Positions 11,695 to 62,083 of a DNA stretch of 64,000 nucleotides are shown here, piece by piece. The position numbers and the translations under genes were made by a program. Source of the stretch: a virus; the IMG/VR virus record IMGVR_UViG_3300027714_000004, positions 1 to 64,000 of that record. The stretch is one strand, 5' to 3'. The notes under the pieces were generated by a model that did no database searches, was not told the DNA's origin, and was given only the letters and a program-made list of their open reading frames with translations. Every line of letters starts with the position of its first letter. Within the stretch, counting starts at the first letter, position 1.

Positions 11695-12354
11695 ATGAAA
11701 CTGATTAGCGAATACGTAGAGAACGATGTACAATGCATTGTAGAAGCCAAAGATAATGGTGAGAAGAGTTACGTTATTGAAGGTGTATTTGCACAAGCAG
11801 ATCAAAAGAATAGAAACGGACGTATTTACCCAAGAGCCATTATGGAGTCTGCGGTAAATAAATATGTTGAAGACCAAGTTAGCAAGAAACGCGCCGTGGG
11901 TGAATTGAATCATCCTGAAGGCCCTACAGTTAACTTGGATAAAGTTTCTCACCTCATCACTGACCTTAGATTAGAAGGCAATGATGTGGTAGGAAGGGCA
12001 CAAATATTAGATACTCCTATGGGTAAGATCGTAAAAGGTCTCTTAGAAGGTGGTGTTCAATTAGGCGTGTCAACTCGTGGTATGGGAAGTCTTGAGACAA
12101 GAAATGGCGTAAACTACGTCAAAGAAGACTTTATTCTTAGTACAATTGATATTGTGCAAGATCCAAGTGCACCTGAAGCTTTCGTTAATGGGATTATGGA
12201 AGGTGTAGACTGGGTATGGAATAATGGAATTTTACAACCTCAAGTCATTGAAGAGATAGAGACTGAAATCAAACAAGCAACTGAAGCACATCGTCCAGAA
12301 GTGCAGATTCGTGAGTTTAAGAATTTCCTCTCGTTAATCAAATCTAAACTATAA
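11695..12354 (+). CDS. gp21: Prohead core protease gp21
   Basis: Serine protease of the herpes-assemblin-like fold that cleaves scaffold, capsid and internal head proteins after [LI]-x-E. Catalytic candidates are His in GELNHPEGP (about residue 73) and Ser in LGVSTRGMGS (about 126), spaced as in the family. Length 219 matches T4 gp21 (212). An IVE/A sequence near residue 18 may be a self-cleavage site. It lies between the core protein and scaffold genes as in T4. Confidence 0.95.
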   Translation: MKLISEYVENDVQCIVEAKDNGEKSYVIEGVFAQADQKNRNGRIYPRAIMESAVNKYVEDQVSKKRAVGELNHPEGPTVNLDKVSHLITDLRLEGNDVVGRAQILDTPMGKIVKGLLEGGVQLGVSTRGMGSLETRNGVNYVKEDFILSTIDIVQDPSAPEAFVNGIMEGVDWVWNNGILQPQVIEEIETEIKQATEAHRPEVQIREFKNFLSLIKSKL

Positions 12355-12363
12355 GGAGTCACT

Positions 12364-13410
12364 ATGACTGATTTAAATAAGACAGACAGTGAAATCCGCG
12401 ATACAGATGTTGAAACTAACGAAATCGTGGAGGGAACTCTCGAAGAAGCAAAAGCCCCTGCAGCTACAGGCGTAACGACAGACGGACAAGAAGTATCAGA
12501 GCCAGAGTCAATCGCATCAGTAGACAAAGCGGCAAAATCTACTTCTAAGGCGACACTACCTAAAACTAAAGCTGGTATGATCAATGCGATGTATCAGAAA
12601 ATGAACAAGATGAAGAAAGAAGATCTAACTTCTTCTTATTCAAAAATGTTCGAAGGTATTGACCTAGAAGACTATGTTGCAGAACAAACTGATTCTCAGT
12701 CTGAACTTGCGGCAATCGTTGAAGGCGAAGCAACTCTATCTGAAGAGTTCAAAGAAAAGACATCACTAATTTTTGAAGCAGCTGTTAAGTCAAAGTTGTC
12801 CGAAGAAGTTACTCGTCTTGAAGAGCAGTATTCAGAAGAACTTGCTGAAGAAGTATCTTCAATTAAAACCGACTTGGTAGGTAAGGTAGATTCTTACCTA
12901 AACTATGTAGTTGAATCTTGGATGGAAGAGAACAAGTTAGCGATCCACTCCGGTCTACGTACCGAAATCGCTGAAGGGTTCATGGACAAGATGAAGGATC
13001 TATTCGTAGAGTCTTACATCGACGTTCCAGAGTCTAAGGTAGACCTAGTTGACGAATTAGCATTGCAAGTAGAAGAGTTAGAAGAAAAACTAAACTCAAC
13101 TACTGGTGACGCAATTTCACTTGCTGAAGAACTAGAAACTTACAAGCGTGATTCAATCATCGCTGAAGCTTCTCGTGGATTAGCAGACACACAAGCCGAA
13201 AAGTTAAAAGGACTTCTCGAAACAGTTGAATTTGAAAGTGAAGAGACATTCACTGCAAAAGTAACTACTGTTAAAGAGTCATACTTTTCAAAAGAAATCC
13301 CTGAGCAACTCGAAGAATCAGCCGTCACAGACGATGCTGAAGAAGAAATCGAAGTATCTTCTATGATGGAAGGTTACATCTCTGCTCTAAGAAAAACCTC
13401 TAAGAAATAA
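12364..13410 (+). CDS. gp22: Prohead scaffold protein gp22
   Basis: Major scaffold of the prohead core, degraded by gp21 before packaging. The 348-residue product is highly charged and almost wholly helical, with long Glu/Lys-rich coiled-coil segments. Candidate gp21 sites are present, e.g. IVE/G and LEE/A within the first 30 residues. It is longer than T4 gp22 (269). The position between gp21 and gp23 is canonical, and a good ribosome site (AAGGAG) precedes the ATG. Confidence 0.93.
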   Translation: MTDLNKTDSEIRDTDVETNEIVEGTLEEAKAPAATGVTTDGQEVSEPESIASVDKAAKSTSKATLPKTKAGMINAMYQKMNKMKKEDLTSSYSKMFEGIDLEDYVAEQTDSQSELAAIVEGEATLSEEFKEKTSLIFEAAVKSKLSEEVTRLEEQYSEELAEEVSSIKTDLVGKVDSYLNYVVESWMEENKLAIHSGLRTEIAEGFMDKMKDLFVESYIDVPESKVDLVDELALQVEELEEKLNSTTGDAISLAEELETYKRDSIIAEASRGLADTQAEKLKGLLETVEFESEETFTAKVTTVKESYFSKEIPEQLEESAVTDDAEEEIEVSSMMEGYISALRKTSKK

Positions 13411-48263: not shown

Positions 48264-48351
48264 GGAGAGTTGGCAGAGTGGTCGAATGCACCTGACTTGA
48301 AATCAGACGAACCGCAAGGTTCCATAGGTTCGAATCCTATACTCTCCGCCA
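48264..48351 (+). tRNA. tRNA-Ser (TGA)
   Basis: Acceptor GGAGAGT/ACTCTCC, anticodon loop CTTGAAA giving TGA, long variable arm with ACCGCAAGGT, CCA encoded. Confidence 0.95.
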
Positions 48352-48380
48352 TTTTATATAATACATTGATGAGATATACT

Positions 48381-49817
48381 ATGAATACTAAAGTTTTACT
48401 ATTGCTATCCTCTATATTCCTAACTGCATGTGGTGGTGACGAGTCGTCCACAACTCCTTTAGAGTCTGTTGCCAATACTCCGTCCACACCAACTGTTGCA
48501 GAACCTACGGATTTAGAGATTGCGTTAGAAGATCTCCAAGATATCATGAACGCAACGTCTCCGACTGGTTCCTATGAGGGTTATATCCTCCCAGAGAGCG
48601 ATGACTTCCTCAACATCCCCCAAGACCCCAACAACCCAATTACTGCTGAAAAAGTAGCACTAGGTAAGCTGATATACCACGAAACTGGTATCACTTCTGA
48701 TGGTCTGGGTAAGACCGATATGGATAACACGTGGTCTTGTGCGTCTTGTCACAATGGACAGAACGGGTTTAAGTCTGGTATTCGACAGGGTATTGGTGAA
48801 GGTGGTGTTGGATTCAACCATCGAACTTTTGCCGAAGGTATGGAAGAACTTGCTGATATCCAACCTGTAACATCCCCTACTGTTCTTAATACCGCATATC
48901 AAGAAGTGATGTTATGGAACGGTCAGTTCGGTAATGTTGTGGGTGGTATCGTTAATGTTGGTATTGATCCAGAGAGACACTTTACCGAAGGTACTCCTAA
49001 AGGCGAGAACTTACGTGGATTTGCAGGACTTGAAACTCAAGCACTCGCTGGTTTAGTGGTTCACCGAATGAATGCAGCAGAACCGGACTCTATACTATCT
49101 ACTAATGAGAAGTATCAGATGATGTTTGAGGCGGCATACGGAACATCACGACCGAATGATATGTTAGAGGCAGCTGCTCTTGCGATTGCCGCATACGAAC
49201 GTACTATACTTGCAAACCAAGCTCCTTTTCAAAAGATGTTACGCGGTGACGCAAATGCATTATCTTTAGAAGAAGTTGAAGGTGCGAAGGTATTCTTCGG
49301 TAAGGGTGGTTGTGCGGGTTGTCATAATGGCCCTGCGTTATCTTCACCAGTTGGTTCCTTGGCAAGTGAAGTCTTTATGACACTGGGATTCAATGACTTG
49401 GATATGTGGGAAGATACAGTTGGAGAAGTCAACCAAGCGACAAAAGAAGGTCGTGCTGGATTTACGGGTGATGAGATGGAGAAGTATGCTTTCAAAGTTC
49501 CACCACTATATAACCTCAAAGATACGAACGTGTTTGGTCATGGTGGTTCATTCACCTCTGTAGCAGATGTTGTTAGATACAAGATCATGGCAGTGGCAGA
49601 ACACTCTGAAGTCGAAAGTACAAACCTAGACCATCGTTTCGTCCCTCTGGACTTGACTGATGAAGAAGTATCTAACTTGGTGACTTTCCTAGAAGACGGT
49701 CTACATGATCCGGATTTGATGCGGTATGTTCCTGAAGAACTTCCTAGCGGTAACTGCGTAACTAACAACGATGAACAGTCTAGAGAAGAATTAGGGTGTA
49801 CCAATAATGGTCAGTAA
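48381..49817 (+). CDS. Di-haem cytochrome c peroxidase (MauG/CcpA family) lipoprotein
   Basis: The 478-residue product is an exported c-type cytochrome. A signal peptide with lipobox LTAC (Cys17) is followed by a Ser/Thr/Pro linker, then two haem-binding motifs, CASCH (120-124) and CAGCH (311-315), in the spacing of bacterial di-haem peroxidases. Further family parts are SPTVLNTAYQEVMLWNGQFG (about 165-184) and the C-terminal PPLYNLKDTNVFGHGGS block. The start is the ATG at 48381, 29 bp after tRNA-Ser; an earlier frame overlaps the tRNA. It would reduce peroxide or oxidise a protein in the periplasm, using host haem maturation. It looks acquired from a bacterium. Confidence 0.93.
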   Translation: MNTKVLLLLSSIFLTACGGDESSTTPLESVANTPSTPTVAEPTDLEIALEDLQDIMNATSPTGSYEGYILPESDDFLNIPQDPNNPITAEKVALGKLIYHETGITSDGLGKTDMDNTWSCASCHNGQNGFKSGIRQGIGEGGVGFNHRTFAEGMEELADIQPVTSPTVLNTAYQEVMLWNGQFGNVVGGIVNVGIDPERHFTEGTPKGENLRGFAGLETQALAGLVVHRMNAAEPDSILSTNEKYQMMFEAAYGTSRPNDMLEAAALAIAAYERTILANQAPFQKMLRGDANALSLEEVEGAKVFFGKGGCAGCHNGPALSSPVGSLASEVFMTLGFNDLDMWEDTVGEVNQATKEGRAGFTGDEMEKYAFKVPPLYNLKDTNVFGHGGSFTSVADVVRYKIMAVAEHSEVESTNLDHRFVPLDLTDEEVSNLVTFLEDGLHDPDLMRYVPEELPSGNCVTNNDEQSREELGCTNNGQ

Positions 49818-50339: not shown

Positions 50340-51059
50340 ATGTTTGTACATGCTCCTGTGACCTTGACCGAAATGACTGCTGTTACTACTGACACTGGTC
50401 GTCAATACATGACACCCGAAGGTGTGAATCTACCTTCTATCACTACTGTTCTTTCTATTCTCTCTCGCGACTCCATTGCTAAATGGCGTGCTCGTGTCGG
50501 TGAGAAGGAAGCAAACCGCATCTCCTATCGCGCATCTACGCGTGGTACGTCAGTTCACGAAATCTGTGAGAAGTACGTAAACAACGATCCTGACTGGAAT
50601 AAGTACATGGCAATCAACCCTGATAATGGGGAAATGAAGATGACCAAACGTACTCCTGATTTAATCGATTCGTTCTTGAAGATGAAACCAATCCTTGACG
50701 AACGTTTGACTACTGTTTATGCTCAAGAAGCTCCACTGTACTCTACCCATCTGGGTGTTGCGGGTCGTGTGGATTGCGTTGGTATCTTCGATGGTAAGTT
50801 ATCTATCATTGACTACAAGACTGCTATGAAACCTAAACGTCTTGACTGGATCAAGAACTACTTCATGCAAGAGTCTGCATATGCGATCATGTGGGAAGAG
50901 CGTACAGGAATGCCTATCACTCAGTTGGTGACTATCATCTCTGTCGACAATCACGAACCTCAAGTATTTGTAGAACACCGTGATAACTGGGTGCGGCCAC
51001 TTCGTGATACTATTGCTCAATATAACGAAGAGAATTCCGCAAATTCATTTGACATATAA
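50340..51059 (+). CDS. PD-(D/E)XK nuclease, RecB-like
   Basis: The 239-residue product has the nuclease core: HEICEKY helix (His about 75), GVAGRVDCVGIFDGK (Asp about 144), the LSIIDYKTA strand with D-x-K (about 154-162), and Gln in MQESAYAIMW. This is the exonuclease/RecB-nuclease layout with all catalytic residues. It has its own early promoter, so it acts in infection, e.g. recombination or DNA processing. Marine phages carry similar genes. Confidence 0.88.
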   Translation: MFVHAPVTLTEMTAVTTDTGRQYMTPEGVNLPSITTVLSILSRDSIAKWRARVGEKEANRISYRASTRGTSVHEICEKYVNNDPDWNKYMAINPDNGEMKMTKRTPDLIDSFLKMKPILDERLTTVYAQEAPLYSTHLGVAGRVDCVGIFDGKLSIIDYKTAMKPKRLDWIKNYFMQESAYAIMWEERTGMPITQLVTIISVDNHEPQVFVEHRDNWVRPLRDTIAQYNEENSANSFDI

Positions 51060-51062
51060 ATA
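51055..51062 (+). promoter_or_regulatory. Late promoter before virion-cargo series
   Basis: TATAAATA overlaps the nuclease stop codon and lies 40 bp before the 51103 gene. Confidence 0.8.
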
Positions 51063-51102
51063 GTATTATAATATACTAACCGCATTGATTATGGGAAAAA
51101 TA

Positions 51103-52398
51103 ATGTTAAAATTTGCATCATATCTATCAGAAGCATCTCTAACCTTTGGTGAGATAACTCGTGAAGATAGAGAGTTTCGTCTGGAGTTGTTCTTGCGCAA
51201 ATACAAGAGCAACGAACCATTTGATCTGACTGACGGTGGACAAGTTATACTGAAGTATAATGCAGAGATTGAACGAGCGATGAAGTCAAGAGATTCTAAG
51301 CGTGCTACGGCAATTGGTTTAGAAACTATGGATGGTGACAAGATTTCTTTTGGTAAGCTTCTCAAGACTGGTGAGTTTGGTGGTGGTCGTGGTACTGGGG
51401 GTGGTTCTCTTAACACTCGTGCCACCGAGTCCGCGCAATGTGTCTATCTACAGGCAATTTGGGATAACCCCCAAACTAACTTCTCTCCTGATGAACTACG
51501 TACTGCATATACTAAAACCCATACGGACGCAACACTAGACGAAGTTCTATTGGGTGATGATGCGTGGATATCCTCCTCTATCAATGCAGCGAAAGTATTG
51601 CATAAGGTGTTGAAGAAGAAGCAATACTCTTTCCACCGTGGTTCTAATTGGGTTAGTATCCTTGATAATAAGTTTAAGGAAGTTAACAGAGAAGAGAAAC
51701 AGTTCTCTAATCTAAACAAATGGAATCCTTCTGACATATGGATGGTCGCAAAGGGTGCAGAGAACAAGTACGATATCGAAGGTGCTAAGACACTACAGTA
51801 CTTGAACAATGAGTTGCTCAAGGCATATGCCGCACGTGACATCATTGGAGTATCTCTGAAGAAGGTAGGTAAGAAGGCTAAACTCACTCAAGTGAATTAT
51901 AAGAAACCCTTTGCTTCCCCAAAATTCACCAAGGTGTCATACGGTAAGAGAGACTTCTTCAAGTCAAAAGATGGTTACCTAATGTACTCTGGTGGAGAAA
52001 TCCAGTTTAGAACATACCCAACATTCCAGTGTGAAATCATTGGTAGAGATGCAAAGCACGGTAAGCTGAGTCATGGCCCCATTGACGCTGCTTTATATGC
52101 GACCACTCGTAATATGACGGACAACCGAAAGAAACTAGAAACTATGATTAAGAGTGACCGAGATGGGTTCCTCAAAAAGTTCTATGGATTCTATGACGGT
52201 GCTGTTGACAAACCTGTGGACTATGATACATTTACCAAGAACCTAGAAGATAAGACCACCGAATGGTTGGTGTCAAAGTATTATGTGACATCAATATTTG
52301 TGATGGTTAAGGGAAGGGAACAACAGTTCTTGGAATATCTGTATAGAGGGGCAAAATCACAATCCAAACTTTCATCAGTTCATTTGAAAGTACAATAG
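51103..52398 (+). CDS. Candidate head-targeted nuclease-like protein
   Basis: The 431-residue product starts MLKFASYLSE/A, with an LSE/A gp21-type site; alternatives are ATG 51091 and TTG 51085. A Gly-rich loop (TGEFGGGRGTGGGS, about 80) and NKWNPSDIWMVAKG, then YAARDIIGVSLKKVGK (about 200-255) look like a PD-(D/E)XK active site with Asp and SLK; this is tentative. Late promoter and N-peptide point to packaging in the head. Large for an internal protein. Confidence 0.6.
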   Translation: MLKFASYLSEASLTFGEITREDREFRLELFLRKYKSNEPFDLTDGGQVILKYNAEIERAMKSRDSKRATAIGLETMDGDKISFGKLLKTGEFGGGRGTGGGSLNTRATESAQCVYLQAIWDNPQTNFSPDELRTAYTKTHTDATLDEVLLGDDAWISSSINAAKVLHKVLKKKQYSFHRGSNWVSILDNKFKEVNREEKQFSNLNKWNPSDIWMVAKGAENKYDIEGAKTLQYLNNELLKAYAARDIIGVSLKKVGKKAKLTQVNYKKPFASPKFTKVSYGKRDFFKSKDGYLMYSGGEIQFRTYPTFQCEIIGRDAKHGKLSHGPIDAALYATTRNMTDNRKKLETMIKSDRDGFLKKFYGFYDGAVDKPVDYDTFTKNLEDKTTEWLVSKYYVTSIFVMVKGREQQFLEYLYRGAKSQSKLSSVHLKVQ

Positions 52399-52417
52399 AA
52401 TAGGAGTATAACATACA

Positions 52418-53776
52418 ATGGCACAATTTAGTGTAGAGAGACAACAGAGTTTATTCAACGCAGACCTTCACGAGGTCAACTTATTGGCACGATCTGACGG
52501 GTATCCTATCAAAGAAGATAATTACCTGCACGTTGGTGAATATACTTCGAAGAACCGAATTAAGGTATCTGGATACGAGACAGTATTTTTCAACACATTT
52601 CAGTACGGTAAAGAGTCTGATGTTTGGGATGAAGCGACTTCTGGGGATGCTGACGCAACCCATAACCTTAACTCAAACATGGTTGCCCTACGTGTTGGCG
52701 GAACTGCTGGCGCATCGGTCTTTAGACAAACTCGAAATGTACAGAGATATATTCCTGGCCGACAGTCGCAGTTAACCTTTGCAATAAGAATGGAAGCTCC
52801 TGTTACTGGTATTCGTCGAAGATTTGGTTTGTTTGAAGAAAATAATGGTTTCTTCTTCGAGGATGCTGGCGTTGAGGTCGAGGGGATTCCTCAGTACAAC
52901 GTAGTCATTCGTTCTAAAACAAGTGGTTCTGTTGTTGAAACGCGAGTACCTCGCGAGGCATGGAACGGAGATAAGTTAGATGGTACTGGCCAGAGTGGCA
53001 TCATTGCTGATTCTACTAAACAACAATTAATATCATTTGATTATGAGTGGTATGGAGCAGGCCAAGTTAGAGTTCTATGGAACATTGGTGGGAGAAATAT
53101 ACTTATTCACACCTTCAATCATTCTAATATACTACCTGACGTTTGGTGCTCTACCCCATTCTTACCCATTAGAATGGAACTTGAATGTATCTCTACGATT
53201 GGTGGTGATCATTATATGTATCAAGGGTCAAACAGTTTGGTCAGTGAAGGTGATGGTGGATACGGACATAAGATCGGTATCGCAGAGAATGTTAGTTCTC
53301 CGATCACAGGCACTACAACTAGTTCTGCAAGCATATGGTATCCTATACTAAGTATTAGATTAAAACCTAATGATTTAAAGGGTGTCGTATTACCAACATT
53401 TTTTCAAGTAGCAACCGCTGATAACACTAACTTGTTCTATAGAGTTGTTCGCAATGCGGTGATACCCACTGAGGTTGTTGCTGGACAAGATGGGCCGCAA
53501 CCTTGGTTAAATCAAAGAGACGCTGATGCTTTCACCCAGTATCAAACCTACATTTCTCCTGTGGCAATCGCTGATAATACCGATCAAGGGGTTTCTATTG
53601 ACTCAGGATTCATTACTGGTTCGGGGGGTGATCGAATTTCTGTAGATCCCAATACTCAGTATCAACTCGGTAGAACAGGAATGGGTACTGTAAGTGATAC
53701 ATATACCATACTATGCGCAACAACAGGCTCAAATAAATCTGTTCTCGCGGCAATGACGTGGATTGAACAGAGATAA
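52418..53776 (+). CDS. Structural virion protein, beta-rich
   Basis: The 452-residue product is mostly beta and Gly/Asn/Ser-rich. Segments such as TRNVQRYIPGRQSQLTFAIR and GLFEENNGFFFEDAG recur in tail or fibre-type proteins of marine phages. It has an AGGAG ribosome site. No head-targeting peptide. The exact virion site is not visible. Confidence 0.65.
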   Translation: MAQFSVERQQSLFNADLHEVNLLARSDGYPIKEDNYLHVGEYTSKNRIKVSGYETVFFNTFQYGKESDVWDEATSGDADATHNLNSNMVALRVGGTAGASVFRQTRNVQRYIPGRQSQLTFAIRMEAPVTGIRRRFGLFEENNGFFFEDAGVEVEGIPQYNVVIRSKTSGSVVETRVPREAWNGDKLDGTGQSGIIADSTKQQLISFDYEWYGAGQVRVLWNIGGRNILIHTFNHSNILPDVWCSTPFLPIRMELECISTIGGDHYMYQGSNSLVSEGDGGYGHKIGIAENVSSPITGTTTSSASIWYPILSIRLKPNDLKGVVLPTFFQVATADNTNLFYRVVRNAVIPTEVVAGQDGPQPWLNQRDADAFTQYQTYISPVAIADNTDQGVSIDSGFITGSGGDRISVDPNTQYQLGRTGMGTVSDTYTILCATTGSNKSVLAAMTWIEQR

Positions 53777-53784
53777 AATAAAGG

Positions 53785-53813
53785 TTGCATAACCACTAAC
53801 AGTATGTTATAAT
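53785..53813 (+). promoter_or_regulatory. Weak early-type promoter
   Basis: TTGCAT and TATAAT with 17 bp between, in the gap before 53843. The -35 box is poor. Confidence 0.45.
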
Positions 53814-53842
53814 AACATATTCCTTACTAGATGGATAACATA

Positions 53843-55063
53843 ATGGAAAACTTCGCAGATTTCATAACGGAGCAAAAGAATACGCATATGACTCACATTG
53901 AGGACAAAGTCCTGTACGGTGGAGTTGATGGTACGCGTCAGGCTATTAATGCTCTGCGAAGTCTGCGAGATATGTTGTCCGGTAGTTCAAAGGGAAGCGT
54001 CTCAGTAAAGTGGGACGGTGCTCCTGCAATCTTTTGTGGCACCGACCCAAGTGACGGTAAGTTCTTTGTTGCTAAGAAAGGTATCTTCAATAAGAACCCA
54101 AAGGTCTATAAGACTAATGCAGACATCGACGATGATACGTCAGGTGACCTAAATGCAAAGTTAAAGGAAGCATTACTATATCTTCCTGAGTTGGGAATCA
54201 AGGGTGTAATTCAGGGAGACTTCCTGTTCGGTAAAGGAGATGTGTCCACTAAGAACATCGACGGACAGAAGTATACCGTGTTCCACCCAAACACTATTGC
54301 GTATGCAGTGCCGTACGACCAATCTAAAGAAGTGCGCGATGCTAAGATCGGTATCGTGTGGCACACTACCTATAAAGGTAAAGACTTTGAGTCAATGTCT
54401 GCTTCATATGGAGTGGATGTTTCTAAACTAAAGAAGTCTAGAAACGTATGGTCTCAGGACGCGATGTTGCGAGACGCGACTAAAGCAACAATGTCGGAAA
54501 AGGATACCAAAGAAGTCAATGGTCTGTTGACTCAGATAGGGTTGTTGTTCAAACAAACCTCTTCCACAACTCTACGTGCACTAGAGAGCAATCCCAAACT
54601 AGCGCAATCTATAGAGACATACAACAATTCCTTTGTTCGTGCGGGTGCATTACTTCCGGACTCAAAAAGGCATGTTAGCGGATTGATAAGTAATAGACAA
54701 GCTTACTACAAGAAAGAGATAGACAGTAAGAAGTCTGAACGTGGTAAAGAGACGTGGAAACAGAAATATGCCGATGAAATGGAGTTTTTCTCTCCTTCTA
54801 ACCGTGCTAATCTAGTTAAAATGTTCGAATTGCAAAAATTAATAGTTTTGGTTAAATTAAAACTTATAAATAGTTTAGACAAATTAAAGTTGATTGACAC
54901 TTTCGTGAAAACTTCTAAAGGTTATAAAGTGACTGGTGAAGAAGGTTATGTAGCAATTGACACACTTGGTGGTGACGCGGTGAAATTGGTTGACCGTATG
55001 GAATTTTCATACAACAACTTTTCGTCCGATATATTAAAGGGCTGGGACTCAGCTCGAAGATAA
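53843..55063 (+). CDS. Nucleotidyltransferase/ligase-like protein, head-targeting N-terminus
   Basis: The 406-residue product (start at the second ATG, which has GGATAA upstream and gives MENFADFITE) has an ITE site followed by a VSVKWDGAPAIF segment (54-63) that matches motif I K-x-D-G of covalent nucleotidyltransferases (DNA/RNA ligases), with Lys56 as candidate. FFVAKKGIF and GVIQGDFLFG could be motifs III and IV; IVWHTTYKGK may hold motif V. Similar proteins in marine phages are DUF6267-type. End-joining or RNA repair cargo is inferred. Confidence 0.65.
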   Translation: MENFADFITEQKNTHMTHIEDKVLYGGVDGTRQAINALRSLRDMLSGSSKGSVSVKWDGAPAIFCGTDPSDGKFFVAKKGIFNKNPKVYKTNADIDDDTSGDLNAKLKEALLYLPELGIKGVIQGDFLFGKGDVSTKNIDGQKYTVFHPNTIAYAVPYDQSKEVRDAKIGIVWHTTYKGKDFESMSASYGVDVSKLKKSRNVWSQDAMLRDATKATMSEKDTKEVNGLLTQIGLLFKQTSSTTLRALESNPKLAQSIETYNNSFVRAGALLPDSKRHVSGLISNRQAYYKKEIDSKKSERGKETWKQKYADEMEFFSPSNRANLVKMFELQKLIVLVKLKLINSLDKLKLIDTFVKTSKGYKVTGEEGYVAIDTLGGDAVKLVDRMEFSYNNFSSDILKGWDSARR

Positions 55064-55096
55064 TAATGGGATAAACCAACAGAAGGATTATATGAC

Positions 55097-55468
55097 ATGT
55101 TGTCATTTAAAGATCTAGTAACGGAAGTACTCGACGTACAACAACGTCGAAAACTTGCGATGCGAATGAAAAGAAACAAATCTAGAATAGCAATTGCGCG
55201 TAAACGTTCTGAAAAGAAGATTGCTAACATGGACACGTTAAAGAAACGTGCACGTCGACAAGCACGTAGCGCAGTAATATCCAAACTCACTAAAGGTAAA
55301 GACAAGGGAGAGATGTCGATAGCTCGTAAGAAAGATATCGAGAAGAGACTAGAACGCCCTGCTTTACAATCCCGTATCGACCGACAAGCTAAGAAACTTG
55401 TGAAGGTAGTTCGTAAGCAAGAAATCGAACGCAAAAGAAACAGGTCTAGAGGCGGTGATAACAAGTGA
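55097..55468 (+). CDS. Very basic head-internal protein (candidate)
   Basis: The 123-residue product is about one third Lys/Arg. It starts MLSFKDLVTE and continues as one long charged helix (RRKLAMRMKRNKSRIAIARK; RRQARSAVISKLTKGK). Homologues are common in cyanophages and other marine T4-like phages near virion genes. A DNA-condensing internal protein is the likely role. Overlaps the next gene by GTGA. Confidence 0.75.
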   Translation: MLSFKDLVTEVLDVQQRRKLAMRMKRNKSRIAIARKRSEKKIANMDTLKKRARRQARSAVISKLTKGKDKGEMSIARKKDIEKRLERPALQSRIDRQAKKLVKVVRKQEIERKRNRSRGGDNK

Positions 55469-57138
55469 TTAAGAATTTTAGTCAATATCTTATCGAAGAA
55501 GAACGCGAAGTCTACTTCACGTTTGGTCGTATGAATCCTCCTACGATTGGTCATGGTAAGGTAATGGATATGTTAGCGAAGAAGTCTGGGAAGTCAGACT
55601 ATAAAGTATTTGTGTCTCAGTCACAGGACGCGAAGAAGAACCCGTTATCATACTCCGATAAAATCAAGCACACAAGAAAGATGTTTCCGAAACATGCACG
55701 GAATATCATGGTGGATAAGTCTGTTAAAACAGCTATCAACGCCATGGTCGCATTACACGATCAAGGTTACCAATCAGTAACTATGGTTGTGGGTGACGAC
55801 AGAATTACAGAATTCGATGTACTATTAAAGAAATACAATGGTGCACAGGCCAGACATGGTTTTTATAACTTCAAGAGCATTAAAGTAGTATCTGCCGGTA
55901 AGAGAGATCCAGATTCTGCTGGTATTGAAGGTATGTCCGCATCCAAACAAAGAGAGAACGCGTCTAATAACGATTTCGTTTCTTTCTCCCAAGGTGTTCC
56001 TAAGACAATGTCAAATCCTGACACACGTAAGTTGTTTAATGACGTGCGTAAGGGTATGGGTCTGAAGGAAGCCAGTGAATTCCGTAATCACCTAGAACTA
56101 GAGATAGTATCTGAAACACGAGAGAAATTCGTGCAAGGAGAATTGTTCGAGGTAGGCGATATAGTAGTAATCAAAGAAAGTGAAGAGGTTGCTACTATAT
56201 CCGTCCTAGGTGCAAACTATGTCATCGTTGAAACTAACGATGGTAAGAAGATGCGTAAATGGTTAGAGTCTGTAGAGTTAATCTCCGAAGACGTGACCCA
56301 GAAGCAACTTAATGATCTAGAGAAGTTCGGTGACCGTCTATTGAAGAAGTTCAATATCGACATCGAGTTTACTCGACACTTCGCAGACCGTATGAATGAT
56401 ACCCGTAATAGTCCTGCTATTAAGGTAACGGAACTTCAACGTCTGTTTAAGAAGATTGCAAAGAACAAGGGCAAAGGCATAAAACAGCATGGGGATGCTG
56501 AGGCAGTACTGAAAGATATGCAGTCAGACCTAAATCTACCTGTCGTTGTAAACTATAAGGACGGTGAGTTCGAAATGGTTAACAAGACTATTATGCGTAA
56601 GAAGGGATTCAAGACTAGCAGTCCAGTCATCCAGTATGAAGGACAAGACCCTGATATCAAAGACCGCGAAGGTACTCAACCAGCACGTTATCACAAAGGA
56701 CTTGCGAAGTCCACCAAGGCAAAACGTGATGCGCACTTCAAAGCAAAGAAAGATGGCCCTGCGCCAGGCGATGCTAACGCAAAGACCAAACCTTCCAAGT
56801 ATACTAAATCCTTTAAGGACATGTATGACGAAGATTGTTGGGACGGTTACAAGCAAGTCGGTGTGAAAAAGAAAGGTGGTAAGACCGTACCGGATTGTGT
56901 TGCAGAAGAGAATAGTCAAGGTATTAACGAAGGGTTCATGGACACAGTAAAGTCTAAGACCATCAATAAAAAACAATACCAACATGCGTTGATGACTTTG
57001 AAGAATCTTCTGACTCGTAAGAGTGATGAGAATAACCTGACTCATAGTACAGAGTATTATGCACAGAAGGTCGCCAAAACATATTCGGGTATGGACACTA
57101 AAGTACTGCACCGTATGTTAGGGAATTGGAAACCATGA
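55465..57138 (+). CDS. Cytidylyltransferase-like polyprotein, head-targeting N-terminus
   Basis: The 557-residue product starts at GTG: MIKNFSQYLIE/E. Residues about 14-195 are a nucleotidyltransferase domain: FGRMNPPTIGHGK holds the T/H-x-G-H site (H30) and GMSASKQREN (156-165) the second motif. After a GLKE/A site comes a small barrel (ELFEVGDIVVIKESE), then after LISE/D a helical module (FTRHFADRMNDTRNS), a DCWDGYKQVGVKKKGG module common in marine phage virion proteins, and a last part after INE/G. The order domain-site-domain suggests gp21 processing. Confidence 0.72.
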   Translation: MIKNFSQYLIEEEREVYFTFGRMNPPTIGHGKVMDMLAKKSGKSDYKVFVSQSQDAKKNPLSYSDKIKHTRKMFPKHARNIMVDKSVKTAINAMVALHDQGYQSVTMVVGDDRITEFDVLLKKYNGAQARHGFYNFKSIKVVSAGKRDPDSAGIEGMSASKQRENASNNDFVSFSQGVPKTMSNPDTRKLFNDVRKGMGLKEASEFRNHLELEIVSETREKFVQGELFEVGDIVVIKESEEVATISVLGANYVIVETNDGKKMRKWLESVELISEDVTQKQLNDLEKFGDRLLKKFNIDIEFTRHFADRMNDTRNSPAIKVTELQRLFKKIAKNKGKGIKQHGDAEAVLKDMQSDLNLPVVVNYKDGEFEMVNKTIMRKKGFKTSSPVIQYEGQDPDIKDREGTQPARYHKGLAKSTKAKRDAHFKAKKDGPAPGDANAKTKPSKYTKSFKDMYDEDCWDGYKQVGVKKKGGKTVPDCVAEENSQGINEGFMDTVKSKTINKKQYQHALMTLKNLLTRKSDENNLTHSTEYYAQKVAKTYSGMDTKVLHRMLGNWKP

Positions 57139-57407
57139 TTAATTTTAAGAAATACCTTGACGAGGGACGTTATTCAGTGTATGATACGCTTGAACTGGAC
57201 GAAGGCCCAGACGGTATTGCAGGAAAAGCAAAGAAGTCCGGTATCTCTTCGGAGGTATTGCAGAAAGTTTATAACCGTGGAGTTGCAGCATGGAAGACGG
57301 GTCACAGGCCCGGCACAACACCCCAGCAGTGGGGTCATGCACGAGTGAATGCCTTTATCGTTAAAAAGAAAAAGGGTGGTCTCAACCACGACAAAGATCT
57401 AGCATAA
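57135..57407 (+). CDS. DUF5824 virion protein
   Basis: The 90-residue product (ATG 57135 after GGAAACC) starts MINFKKYLDE/G, with a second LDE/G at residue 23. The rest is the DUF5824 signature GIAGKAKKSGISSEVLQKVY, then NRGVAAWKTGHRPGTTPQQW and DKDLA, conserved across marine T4-like phages. The two gp21-type sites would release the bare DUF5824 domain. Overlaps the preceding stop by four bases. Confidence 0.82.
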   Translation: MINFKKYLDEGRYSVYDTLELDEGPDGIAGKAKKSGISSEVLQKVYNRGVAAWKTGHRPGTTPQQWGHARVNAFIVKKKKGGLNHDKDLA

Positions 57408-57473
57408 GATCGCTAAATATTAATACTATTAACCGAGCACCTACTAAGGTGTTTCGCATCTAGAGGAAGTTAA

Positions 57474-58730
57474 GTGAAAAGTTTTAAAGATATACGACTA
57501 TCAGAATCTGTTGACCTAGACGAAGCCAAAGATAAAGACAACGACTATCGTAGAGTGTCTAAGGCTATAACCCAGACCCCTAAACATAAACGAGACAAGA
57601 AAGCAACCGATGCAACCCCTGCCAAGACAGACGCGAAAGCAGTTGCTCGACGCAAAGCGATTGAGAAGCACCAAGCACGATCGAAAGCGAAGAAAGATGA
57701 CTACTCATATGAGTCGGTTGAAGAAGACGCCTCTGGAATGACTGCTGCTCAGAAGAAGAAGTTCGATACCCTCTATAAAAAAATGGATGGTGGTAAAGAA
57801 CACAGGGCAATCAGACAAAAGATTCATAACCCAATCAAAGCAGACGATGCATTTCATGGTCTAGTCAAGAAGATGGCGATGGAATCTATTGACGAGAGTG
57901 CCAAAGGTCTGGTAGGTGGATTCACCGTAGAGATACCAAAGCAAACTATCTCTGGTAAAACAATCGGTGGTGGTAAAGGCGGAATCTTTGTTAAGGCGAA
58001 GACTGCTCGTCAAGCAATCAGCATGGCGGCAAAACGTCTGGGTGTTGATTTCATGATGCTTAAAGTCGGTAAGGTAGTTAAAGAAGGTGTCGAATCATTT
58101 TCTGAGTCGGTAAACCTTGAAGAAGGAAAAATGAAAGAGTTTCATGACTATATCGATCAAGGTAAATCTGCACAGTGGATTGCTAAGAAGATGGGTCTGG
58201 ACATGAAGACGGTAAAAGAATTGATGGCAGACATGAAAGAGTCTGTCGAACTTGACGAAGCATACCAACAATTCTTGGATAAGGCTCCTAACTGGGGTGA
58301 AGACAAGGCAATCTCTTATGGACGCAAGAAGGGTTACAAAGAGATTGGGGTATGTGGCCACGGTAATATAGATGGTATTGTATTGTTCGGTATGGATGCC
58401 GGTGACAAATCATATGTCGGTAAGGAAGCAAAGGTTAAGACTGGTCAAACAGTATTCCGTTATGCTACTAGACGTACTGTCGCAGGCGATATATTCCCTC
58501 TAGTTAAGATTGATGTTAAGAGAGGTATTCTATATAACCTGTCTCAGAAGTCTAGTGAAGGGGAGATTGAACACGCAGAGTTTGAGACTAAGGGAGTCAA
58601 GTTACGTTATCTTCGTCTTCTCGCTAGTGCTAACCTCCGAGACATTACTGGGTTCGATCCTGGCTTTGGTTCAATGAAAGAGTCTACTGCACTTAAAACT
58701 CTTAGCGATATCCGAGAAGCAAGATCTTAA
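57474..58730 (+). CDS. Candidate gp21-processed polyprotein
   Basis: The 418-residue product starts at GTG with AGAGGAAG upstream: MKSFKDIRLSE/S. Sites of the type [LI]-x-E/[AGS] occur at LSE11, LDE17, IDE141, LEE217, LDE262 and IRE415, several in the shared context ESV-x-L-[DE]-E. They bound four segments: a Lys-rich basic part (18-141), a Gly-rich alpha/beta part (142-217), a short helix-turn-helix-like piece (218-262, MKEFHDYIDQGKSAQWIAKK) and a beta domain (263-415). The regular spacing is the main evidence. No enzyme motif is recognised. Confidence 0.7.
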   Translation: MKSFKDIRLSESVDLDEAKDKDNDYRRVSKAITQTPKHKRDKKATDATPAKTDAKAVARRKAIEKHQARSKAKKDDYSYESVEEDASGMTAAQKKKFDTLYKKMDGGKEHRAIRQKIHNPIKADDAFHGLVKKMAMESIDESAKGLVGGFTVEIPKQTISGKTIGGGKGGIFVKAKTARQAISMAAKRLGVDFMMLKVGKVVKEGVESFSESVNLEEGKMKEFHDYIDQGKSAQWIAKKMGLDMKTVKELMADMKESVELDEAYQQFLDKAPNWGEDKAISYGRKKGYKEIGVCGHGNIDGIVLFGMDAGDKSYVGKEAKVKTGQTVFRYATRRTVAGDIFPLVKIDVKRGILYNLSQKSSEGEIEHAEFETKGVKLRYLRLLASANLRDITGFDPGFGSMKESTALKTLSDIREARS

Positions 58731-59407
58731 TGAGAAGTTTTCGTTCTTTTATAACAGACAGTGTTGATGCCGAGAAAGAATATGGTGCGTCATTTGTCGC
58801 GTCTGCCAAGTCAGTTGGTGTGCAACGTAAGTTGACCAAAGAACTTGGTGTTAAACTCAAAGAGGTAGAGAAGTCTTTGGGTCATGGTGGTGGCGGTAAT
58901 GGACTTACGCCGGACAATGTGAAGTCGAACCCTAAGTGGAAAGCGGCAAAGAAAGCATTGGATGTCGCATTTAAGAAAGAACAACAAATGAACCAAGCGA
59001 TGTCAAAGGCGTTTGGTAAGCAGATGAAAGACTTCCGCAACAAAGATCGTAGAGGGTATATGTCTTTGTTTATCGGAGAGTCTACAGAAGTTTGTTGTGA
59101 AGACTGCGTAGAAGAACTCATCGTTGAAGACGGTGTATTCATCAACGAAGATGGTAAGAAAGATAACGTGAAACTTAACAATCCTACCCGTGGTGGTAGT
59201 AAGAAGTTTTACGTATATGTAAAGAACGAGAAAGGCAACGTGGTTAAGGTTTCTTTCGGAGATCCCAATATGGAGATCAAAAGAGATGATCCTGCACGTC
59301 GAAAGAGTTTCAGGGCAAGGCACAACTGTGCAGACCCTGGCCCGAAGTGGAAGGCACGGTACTGGTCATGTTATCAATGGCGAGCCGGTGCTAAAGTAGA
59401 TAATTGA
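58730..59407 (+). CDS. Head-associated protein with conserved C-terminal module
   Basis: The 225-residue product begins MRSFRSFITD/S, a near-miss of the head-targeting peptide. The first half is basic and helical. After an acidic Cys-rich linker (EVCCEDCVEELIVEDGVF) comes a module (KKFYVYVKNEKGNVVKVSFG, then ARRKSFRARHNC and WKARYWSCYQWRAG) seen in marine phage virion proteins. The four Cys in the linker and end may bind metal. Start overlaps the preceding stop by one base. Confidence 0.65.
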   Translation: MRSFRSFITDSVDAEKEYGASFVASAKSVGVQRKLTKELGVKLKEVEKSLGHGGGGNGLTPDNVKSNPKWKAAKKALDVAFKKEQQMNQAMSKAFGKQMKDFRNKDRRGYMSLFIGESTEVCCEDCVEELIVEDGVFINEDGKKDNVKLNNPTRGGSKKFYVYVKNEKGNVVKVSFGDPNMEIKRDDPARRKSFRARHNCADPGPKWKARYWSCYQWRAGAKVDN

Positions 59408-59859: not shown

Positions 59860-60747
59860 ATGATGTCACACAGTACTACTAAAATTATGGAGGCTTACTT
59901 GTCAATGAAGGTCTCCGAGCAAGAAGCACTTGCCGAAGCTAAAAAGTTGGATGCAGTAGACGATAAGGCGAACGATAAGAAGTTCACTGATCGTAAAGAT
60001 AAAGATATAGATAACGACGGTGACGTAGATTCATCTGATGAGTTCTTACATAAGAAGCGTAAGGCAATCGACAACGAGATTGACGGTGGAGAGAAACCTG
60101 CTGACAATGCTAAACCTAAGAAGGGTGTTAATCCTTTCAAGAAGGAAGAAGTTGAGACTGACGAAGCACGTCAAATGAAAGATCCTAAGAAAGATTCTAT
60201 GGTCACTAAGGGTGGTAAGACTATCGTAATCGACAAGTCTAAGGAAGCAGAATACCTCAAGAAGGGTTGGACTCTATCCGAAGAAAAAGACGAAGAAGAA
60301 GATGATGTCGAGACTGATAAGAAACCTTTCCCACCTAAGAAGAAGAAGCCTGCAGATGTGGATGGTGATGTTGAAGAACCAGAAGCTGACGGAGATTCCG
60401 ATATTAAAAAGAATCCTAAGACTGCTGATAAGAAAGCAGAGATCTCTAAGATCGAAAGTGTAGATACTCGTTCTGCGTTTGAAAAGATGTGGACTGAGAT
60501 TGCTGAAGCAATGGACGCTAAGAAGGCTGCAAAAAATGCTACTGCACCGGATAAGTATGACGATACTGCTTCACCAAACGATAAGAAATTTATCGACATG
60601 CATAAGAAGTCTGACAAGAAGATCGAAGATGGCGAAGAAGCTGGACACGATGTGACCTTTAAAGCTGGTGGTAAGACTATGAAACAAGCCCCTGCTCGAA
60701 GTGGTGCAGACAATCTAAAGAACGGTGATACAAAGTCACCAAAATAA
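59860..60747 (+). CDS. Acidic/basic prohead-core-like protein with gp21-type sites
   Basis: The 295-residue product is nearly all Lys, Asp and Glu. It contains KIME/A (11), ALAE/A (26) and EIAE/A (216) sites and a dockerin-like calcium motif (KDIDNDGDVDSSDEF at about 48-62) followed by LHKKRKAID, a signature seen in marine phage prohead or virion proteins. Low complexity and gp21 sites suggest an internal head protein that is cut at maturation. A second Met at codon 2 is an alternative start. Confidence 0.68.
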   Translation: MMSHSTTKIMEAYLSMKVSEQEALAEAKKLDAVDDKANDKKFTDRKDKDIDNDGDVDSSDEFLHKKRKAIDNEIDGGEKPADNAKPKKGVNPFKKEEVETDEARQMKDPKKDSMVTKGGKTIVIDKSKEAEYLKKGWTLSEEKDEEEDDVETDKKPFPPKKKKPADVDGDVEEPEADGDSDIKKNPKTADKKAEISKIESVDTRSAFEKMWTEIAEAMDAKKAAKNATAPDKYDDTASPNDKKFIDMHKKSDKKIEDGEEAGHDVTFKAGGKTMKQAPARSGADNLKNGDTKSPK

Positions 60748-61133: not shown

Positions 61134-61502
61134 ATGAAGTTAAATAAGAATAACCTTGTTATCTATGCTGCAAAGCACTACTACAACCCCACCCATATCG
61201 ATGGTGAAGAGTTCTTTGATGATCTCAAACGTTTTAAATACGTCAAGAGACTTGTCAATCGATATCAACTGAATGGTGACCTAGCGGAACGTCTCATTCT
61301 AAACCACCTCATTGTTATCTTCAATGTGTTTGGTCATGAGGCGGGAGTAGAGATGTTGGCATTAAAATTGCCGTTAGAACAGTGGCCAACAATCAAACCA
61401 TTCCTTGTATTTCTTCAGGCGATAAAAAATGAGGACATTACAGGTATTGATATGGATAAATACGTAGTAACCAAATTGAGAGAATTACGATGGGCATCCT
61501 AA
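61134..61502 (+). CDS. Conserved marine T4-like phage protein (DUF7207-like)
   Basis: The 122-residue helical product has the start MKLNKNNLVIYAAKHYYNPT, then EEFFDDLKRFKYVKRLVNRY and LAERLILNHLIVIFNVF, shared by a small protein family of T4-like cyanophages and relatives. Function is not known. It overlaps the next gene by 13 bp. Confidence 0.75.
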   Translation: MKLNKNNLVIYAAKHYYNPTHIDGEEFFDDLKRFKYVKRLVNRYQLNGDLAERLILNHLIVIFNVFGHEAGVEMLALKLPLEQWPTIKPFLVFLQAIKNEDITGIDMDKYVVTKLRELRWAS

Positions 61503-62083
61503 AGTCTGCGGTAGACGTAGTATATACAATTAGATTTCTGAAACTACTCGTCACTAAGTTCGAGGATACAGGTGCGTTTAAAGCTGGTATCATTGATAAA
61601 GACGGGAAGAAAAACCCAGACTTCACTACCGATCGTATGGATGATCGCGAAGCATACCGCGAACACTATACCGCATTCCATCGTCTAGTGTTTAACCTAA
61701 AGAAGATCATGGCAAAGGCCCCTGGCGGTACTTCGGTAGTCGCTCGATATGGTGCTGCACTTGCATTGATTAAGGAACACGGAGACCTCTCGGACTCTAA
61801 TCTACAGAAGATTCATGAAGCGTCTGGTATAGATGTCATGGATATTCTAATGGAAAGTTCTCAGTGGTATGTACTGGAGAACGGGTGTGTTGGTCAGGGG
61901 GTGTACCGTATGCGTAATGACTCTATGACGACCTCTGCGGACGAACTAGTACGTAAGGGTGACCAGATCCGTATCGCGGAGGACAACCTATCACATGACG
62001 TTCTAGGCATCTCCATTTTTGAAGGAACCCACTTACGAACAGGTAGACGTGTACTGTTCTCTGCTAATGAGATAACGAAATGA
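61490..62083 (+). CDS. Conserved virion-region protein, unknown
   Basis: The 197-residue product has a conserved N-terminus (SAVDVVYTIRFLKLLVTKFE) that recurs in marine T4-like phages. A helical middle is followed by a beta-rich C-terminal part (ENGCVGQGVYRMRNDSMTTS). No enzyme motif. Coupled to both neighbours, so the three genes form one unit. Confidence 0.7.
   Translation: MGILKSAVDVVYTIRFLKLLVTKFEDTGAFKAGIIDKDGKKNPDFTTDRMDDREAYREHYTAFHRLVFNLKKIMAKAPGGTSVVARYGAALALIKEHGDLSDSNLQKIHEASGIDVMDILMESSQWYVLENGCVGQGVYRMRNDSMTTSADELVRKGDQIRIAEDNLSHDVLGISIFEGTHLRTGRRVLFSANEITK

What the first reader, a model, noticed from the sequence alone, without database searches (positions are those of the whole stretch)
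57474..58730. Polyprotein cut by the prohead protease
The 418-residue product has six [LI]-x-E/[AGS] sites at residues 11, 17, 141, 217, 262 and 415. Three occur in the repeated context ESV-x-L-[DE]-E, and the sites fall between segments of different composition. This would make four or more small proteins from one gene inside the prohead.
Basis: inference. Interest (0 to 1): 0.85.

Follow-up and report, generated by a model that had tools for sequence, protein, structure and literature searches.

The report
Shuffled phage-head polyprotein with protease-type junctions
A marine T4-like virus carries one gene that strings together several small, mostly basic protein modules, joined by copies of the signal that its head-assembly protease is known to cut; related viruses keep the junctions but reshuffle the modules, which suggests a swappable package of proteins loaded into the virus head and probably injected into the host.

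Summary
The ORF at 57474-58730 (418 aa) has [LI]xE/[AGS] at exactly the six stated residues (0.84 expected, p about 5e-5), three in ESVxL[DE]E. In the window only the scaffold (gp22) and the protease (gp21) show a similar excess. Relatives in IMG/VR turn the guess into a strong inference: the stretches between sites are modules that recur in other orders, numbers and neighbours. In 49 unrelated contexts of one module the preceding residue is Glu 49/49 times and P3 is L/V/M/I 49/49; homology stops at the scissile bond. The same modules also sit directly behind N-terminal capsid-targeting-type peptides (FIAE/A, LMTE/A, DIRE/S), and one relative carries a tandem duplication running exactly from bond to bond. 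Modules are mostly basic, like T4 internal proteins; products of the equivalent cyanophage S-SCSM1 cluster are annotated as virion proteins. Corrections: sites 11/17 are the N-terminal leader, 415 is not conserved, and an unlisted VEE/D at 84 is probably a junction. Cutting and ejection are not shown. Best reading: a modular polyprotein of internal head proteins processed by gp21, a new variant of the T4 internal-protein system.

The parts
57474..58730 (+). Polyprotein gene, 418 aa, GTG start
   Evidence: Open frame; relatives in 24 IMG/VR loci; dN/dS 0.12-0.22
57474..57524 (+). N-terminal leader, residues 1-17 (MKSFKDIRLSE/SVDLDE/A), capsid-targeting-type, with candidate cuts after E11 and E17
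   Evidence: Same form as leaders of neighbouring ORFs and as T4 CTS described in PMC9026906; relatives place modules directly behind such leaders
57525..57725 (+).
   Evidence: Found in other contexts in L003, L006, L158, L247, L257; pI
57726..57896 (+). Module S2, residues 85-141, pI 9.4; ends at IDE/S (E141)
   Evidence: Found in other contexts in L014, L017, L018-L023
57897..58124 (+). Module S3, residues 142-217, pI 9.8; ends at ESVNLEE/G (E217); a relative has a weak Jag_N-like match
   Evidence: Directly behind the leader MRTFKDIRE/ in L005 and L007; L083 Jag_N E 0.057
58125..58259 (+). Module S4, residues 218-262, helix-turn-helix-like; ends at ESVELDE/A (E262)
   Evidence: 49 unrelated upstream contexts, P1 Glu in 49/49; weak HTH matches
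58260..58679 (+). Module S5, residues 263-402, alpha/beta domain of unknown function
   Evidence: 17 unrelated contexts, P1 Glu in 16; AF2 pTM 0.69
58680..58730 (+). C-terminal tail, residues 403-418 (ESTALKTLSDIRE/ARS) and stop codon; resembles a degenerate leader; site E415 not conserved
   Evidence: Compare ALKTLSDIRE with N-terminal VKTLKDLRE of L003; L003, L004, L006 read IRAER
11695..12354 (+). gp21 prohead protease, the proposed cutting enzyme
   Evidence: Peptidase_S77 E 2.6e-39; T4 gp21 structure 5jbl E 1e-26; His73 and Ser126 in the conserved positions
12364..13410 (+). gp22 scaffold, internal control: 7 sites against 1.8 expected
   Evidence: T4_CASP E 2e-66; site count
51055..51062 (+). 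Late-promoter-like TATAAATA before the cluster of ORFs with targeting-type leaders (51085-59407)
   Evidence: 20 matches in the window against 4.4 expected, all on +

Best explanation
The gene encodes a modular polyprotein of internal head proteins. Its N-terminal peptide targets the whole chain into the prohead core, as in T4 internal proteins. During head maturation gp21 cuts after the Glu of each (L/I/V/M)xE junction, releasing about five small, mostly basic proteins (S1-S5) that stay with the DNA and are probably ejected into the host, where they would act as early effectors or anti-defence factors. Relatives swap, duplicate and reorder modules at the junctions, because each junction is a self-contained linker that keeps both reading frame and cleavability. 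Shown here: the modules, the shuffling, the coincidence of homology breaks with the (L/I)xE bond, the interchangeability with N-terminal leaders, and the protease gene. Inferred: cleavage, packaging of this product, ejection and effector role.
For: Module shuffling. Anchored border test: P1 Glu 49/49 (S4) and 16/17 (S5), P3 L/V/M/I 49/49 and 16/17, identity step at P1/P1'. Modules directly behind N-terminal leaders. Tandem duplication of exactly one module plus linker in L041. P1' is A/G/S in 75% of linkers against 22% background, also in loci chosen by module homology. Site excess shared only with gp22 and gp21. gp21 with its catalytic-type residues present. Basic modules, 79% with pI above 8.5 against 18% of window ORFs. 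The S-SCSM1 counterpart cluster, including a 520-aa protein with EEVELDE/R and a stand-alone DUF3008 protein, is annotated as virion protein, and the paper reports virion mass spectrometry. AF2 shows no single fold.
Against: No peptide or gel evidence of cutting in any member. P1' is K, D, Q, R or V in a quarter of linkers, and P3 is Val or Met in some junctions (including VEE/D at 84), so not every junction need be cut. Site 415 is not conserved. S4 is not basic (pI 5.3). Linkers are also alike in DNA, so part of their conservation may serve recombination. The generic breakpoint test gave only weak enrichment.
Confidence: 0.78

Rival explanations
1. Uncut multidomain virion protein: only the N-terminal leader is removed, and the ESVxLDE copies are acidic linkers between domains that also ease recombination, as in polyvalent proteins that are injected whole.
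For: Linker DNA is more alike than codon usage predicts, 0.71 against 0.48, strongly in L069; some linkers have P1' K/R/D/Q; many polyvalent proteins are multi-domain injected chains.
Against: P1 Glu and P3 aliphatic are kept while P2, P4 and P5 vary, which is a protease specificity pattern rather than a flexible-linker pattern; internal borders and N-terminal leader cut sites are interchangeable; in the window gene the three linkers differ at synonymous positions.
Confidence: 0.15
2. Cut, but as a scaffold-like core protein: like gp22, gp67 and gp68 it is degraded into peptides that mostly leave the head, rather than giving cargo proteins.
For: T4 core proteins are cut into several fragments by gp21 (PMC9026906); gp22 here has seven sites.
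Against: Modules are folded-looking, diverse and exchanged between phages, unlike a conserved scaffold; some occur as separate CTS-bearing or stand-alone proteins, one annotated as a virion protein; gp22 is already present.
Confidence: 0.05
3. Chance: the sites are a by-product of an acidic, Leu- and Glu-containing sequence and mean nothing.
For: The motif is short and the protein is rich in charged residues.
Against: p about 5e-5 by shuffling, and 49/49 conservation at homology-defined borders.
Confidence: 0.02

Closest known systems
T4 internal proteins IPI/IPII/IPIII and Alt with capsid targeting sequences, processed by gp21
   Same: N-terminal targeting-type peptide ending in (L/I)xE, gp21-type protease in the genome, small basic variable proteins, proposed loading of varied cargo into heads (PMC9026906, PMC3012670).
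   Different: T4 encodes one internal protein per gene with one leader; here several modules are in one chain with a leader-type site before each, and the modules are shuffled.
Polyvalent proteins of phages and conjugative elements (Iyer et al. 2017, PMC5512222)
   Same: Multi-domain, highly rearranged proteins transferred with the DNA; release of domains by proteolysis is proposed.
   Different: There the peptidase domain is embedded in the chain; here no peptidase domain was found in the chain and the proposed cutter is the separate prohead protease. None of the domains found here matched a family named for polyvalent proteins.
Ejection proteins of giant phages SPN3US and phiKZ
   Same: Prohead protease cuts after xxE; propeptides of ejection proteins can hold several sites (PMC10052503).
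   Different: There 13 of 14 cuts remove N-terminal propeptides; no shuffled multi-protein precursor is reported in the passages read.

Membership tests
T4-type CTS-bearing internal head protein | N-terminal leader of about 10-19 residues ending in the gp21 cleavage motif | tested here: met
   MKSFKDIRLSE/SVDLDE/A
T4-type CTS-bearing internal head protein | gp21-type protease encoded by the same phage | tested here: met
   11695-12354, Peptidase_S77 and 5jbl match, His73 and Ser126
T4-type CTS-bearing internal head protein | Basic mature product(s) | tested here: met
   S1, S2, S3 and S5 have pI 9.4-9.8; S4 is an exception at 5.3
T4-type CTS-bearing internal head protein | One mature protein per gene | tested here: not met
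   Several separately shuffled modules in one chain
T4-type CTS-bearing internal head protein | Present in the mature head and cut by gp21 | not testable with these tools
   Needs virion proteomics or co-expression
Polyvalent protein | Several domains in one chain with rearranged architectures | tested here: met
Polyvalent protein | Domains of the described polyvalent repertoire, often with an embedded peptidase | tested here: inconclusive
   No Pfam or PHROG family on this protein; weak HTH on S4 only; absence from the libraries does not exclude distant members
Polyprotein in the strict sense | Protease-type site at each module border | tested here: met
   S4 49/49 and S5 16/17 with P1 Glu; S2 and S3 alike, with one P3 exception
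Polyprotein in the strict sense | Separate products demonstrated | not testable with these tools

The most novel reading that the evidence does not exclude
Many marine T4-like phages carry an open-ended cassette polyprotein: small injected effectors or anti-defence proteins are strung together by duplicated capsid-targeting/cleavage peptides, released in trans by the prohead protease inside the head, and reshuffled at those peptides. It would be a head-packaged, polymorphic effector array with a pool of well over a hundred module families.
Probability: 0.55. Interest if true: 0.9.

Novelty: new variant of a known kind. Interest (0 to 1): 0.74.

Why it matters
T4 packages three IPs and Alt from separate genes. 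If this reading holds, marine relatives load a variable number of cargo proteins from a single gene by repeating the leader-type site before each module, which would explain how they can change their injected cargo quickly. It gives a sequence rule, (L/I/V/M)xE at shuffled borders, for finding phage-delivered proteins among 'hypothetical' ORFs of ocean viruses, and makes 148 segment families candidates for anti-defence testing. It also turns the old question of what the variable internal proteins do into one that can be tested module by module.

Tried and rejected
tblastn of the whole protein and of S2 against 50,697 phage records: no match. Pfam and PHROGs on the protein: none; on modules: only weak HTH matches for S4, a weak Jag_N match in L083, and DUF3008/DUF5824 in relatives. 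Fold search of S5: no significant PDB match; the second look gave a best Z of 2.2, and no PDB family was listed above that; one BFVD match to Vibrio phage nt-1 R9TJK7 could not be confirmed by sequence in nt-1 and is not used. A generic BLAST breakpoint test gave only weak enrichment because HSP ends are noisy; it was replaced by the anchored test. The DNA-repeat-only explanation is partly true in L069 but not in the window gene. A first structure alignment with short fragments misaligned and was dropped. Literature: no head polyprotein of this kind was found in 10 searches of an open-access library; subscription papers are not covered.

Full report
What was checked. The ORF at 57474-58730 is open, 418 aa, GTG start. 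Shuffling the protein gives 0.84 sites on average and reaches six with frequency 5e-5. Of the window's other ORFs only the scaffold gp22 (7 seen, 1.8 expected) and the protease gp21 (4 seen, 0.65 expected) show a comparable excess; in T4 the scaffold is a gp21 substrate and gp21 is thought to cut itself (PMC9026906). ESVxL[DE]E occurs three times in the window, all in this gene.

Relatives. The protein has no match in the named-phage collection, Pfam or PHROGs, but 24 IMG/VR loci encode relatives. Two are identical; the rest share parts. Laid side by side, the stretches between sites behave as modules. L003 has another module in the place of S3. L004 has S4 and S5 with new modules between and around them. 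L005 and L007 start with S3 directly behind MRTFKDIRE/ and continue with S5, then other modules including S4. L006 has 718 aa with S1, S3, S4 and S5 plus several others. L013 is leader + S5 + a module that in the window is the C-terminus of the next gene (58730-59407). A scan for the linker peptide found many more contigs, with proteins of up to 938 aa and up to eight linkers. In 50 such ORFs I count 269 segments in 148 families, 32 of them behind at least two different upstream neighbours. Segment cutting there uses the motif, so these counts describe the family and do not test the motif.

The test of the border. To avoid circularity I anchored on module cores trimmed well inside the linkers and looked upstream. 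For S4, 49 contexts with dissimilar upstream sequence have Glu at P1 in 49/49 and L/V/M/I at P3 in 49/49 (Leu 39). For S5, 17 contexts have Glu at P1 in 16 and L/I/M at P3 in 16. For S4 the mean pairwise identity is 0.05-0.11 from P24 to P8, 0.64 at P3 and 1.0 at P1; for S5 it is 0.02-0.23 from P24 to P5, 0.67 at P3 and 0.88 at P1; it stays high from P1' on. P4 and P5 vary in both, P2 clearly in S4. S2 and S3, unrelated modules, show the same (IDE/G, LDE/D, LGE/S, IEE/S, LVE/K; IRE/S, IDE/S, LEE/A; one WDE/S exception in L006). So the thing kept in front of unrelated modules is (L/I/V/M)xE. It cannot be just the first residues of one module, because unrelated modules share it and because very different leader peptides supply it: FIAE/A, LMTE/A, LLE/T, DIRE/S, TLNE/G. 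DUF3008, a Pfam family, sits behind LRE/K in leaders and behind ESVELDE/K inside L052. In L041 a tandem duplication has a unit of exactly 64 aa from P1' to P1. P1' is A/G/S in 75% of linkers against 22% background, in loci chosen by module homology as well as in those chosen by motif; the motif pattern itself required Ala or Gly at one linker per locus, so only the homology-chosen set counts as a test.

Mechanism. T4 internal proteins carry a 10-19-residue N-terminal capsid targeting sequence that is cut by gp21, and the CTS has been proposed as a way to load varied proteins into heads (PMC9026906; PMC3012670). The window encodes gp21 (T4 gp21 structure 5jbl; His73 and Ser126 present). Neighbouring ORFs also begin with CTS-like peptides (IKNFSQYLIEE, MINFKKYLDE, MLSFKDLVTE, MENFADFITE), and a late-promoter-like TATAAATA stands at 51055 before this cluster. 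In cyanophage S-SCSM1 the counterpart cluster (ORFs 91-93: an NMNAT with leader MKSFLQFLKE/A, a 520-aa protein containing EEVELDE/R, and a stand-alone DUF3008 protein) is annotated as virion protein, and the paper reports mass spectrometry of CsCl-purified virions. Modules are basic: 79% have pI above 8.5 against 18% of window ORFs. The best explanation is therefore a polyprotein of internal head proteins cut by gp21.

What is not settled. Cleavage, packaging and ejection are inferred. Linkers are also more alike in DNA than codon usage predicts (0.71 against 0.48), strongly so in L069 but not in the window gene, so they probably serve recombination as well. A generic BLAST breakpoint test gave only weak enrichment. 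AF2 gave a broken full-length model (pTM 0.33, low confidence at 74-84, 140-216 and 255-275), which agrees with separate domains but rests on 15 sequences. S5 has a plausible alpha/beta fold (pTM 0.69) without a significant relative in the PDB, and no module of this protein has an assigned function; S4 looks like a helix-turn-helix (weak matches).

Known or new. Membership: the leader, gp21 and basic products are met; one protein per gene is not; virion presence was not testable. Polyvalent proteins (PMC5512222) share the multi-domain, rearranging architecture but are proposed to be released by embedded peptidases. SPN3US ejection proteins lose propeptides (PMC10052503). I found no report of a shuffled multi-module precursor cut in trans by the prohead protease in the open-access papers searched. 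I file it as a new variant of the T4 internal-protein kind.

Noticed in passing
window 59860-60747: Neighbouring ORF (phrog_22379) shares the module ARQMKDPKKDSMV..GGKTIVIDKSKE with L003's polyprotein, and carries a DxDxDGDxD loop (KDIDNDGDVDSSDEFLHKKRKAI) that recurs in neighbouring genes of Melnitz, HTVC008M and C48C1 and inside modular proteins such as L083.
   Followed up: partly
window 57126-57407: DUF5824 is a separate small gene here and in C48C1, but is fused to the cytidyltransferase in Melnitz and HTVC008M.
   Followed up: partly
window 58730-59407: The C-terminal SFRARHNCA module (phrog_7595) is fused behind S5 in L013 and stands in the cytidyltransferase chain in Melnitz; in several phages it starts right behind a leader-type site (E/AEYQGK).
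   Followed up: partly
L069:1500-3947: Six linkers of the strict form are almost identical in DNA (GAATCCGTTGAACTGGATGAA), a possible recombination repeat inside a coding sequence.
   Followed up: partly
L041:5255-7291 and L100:1716-3707: Tandem duplications of one module plus its linker, with the unit running from bond to bond.
   Followed up: yes
window 48270-49817: This ORF begins inside a tRNA-Ser gene (48264-48351; N-terminus LAEWSNAPDLKSDEPQGS), so its first residues are probably not translated as listed.
   Followed up: yes
window, whole: TATAAATA occurs 20 times against 4.4 expected, all on the + strand, as expected of T4-type late promoters.
   Followed up: partly
window 61490-62083: Another ORF with an excess of [LI]xE/[AGS] sites (3 seen, 0.37 expected) and unknown role.
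   Followed up: no
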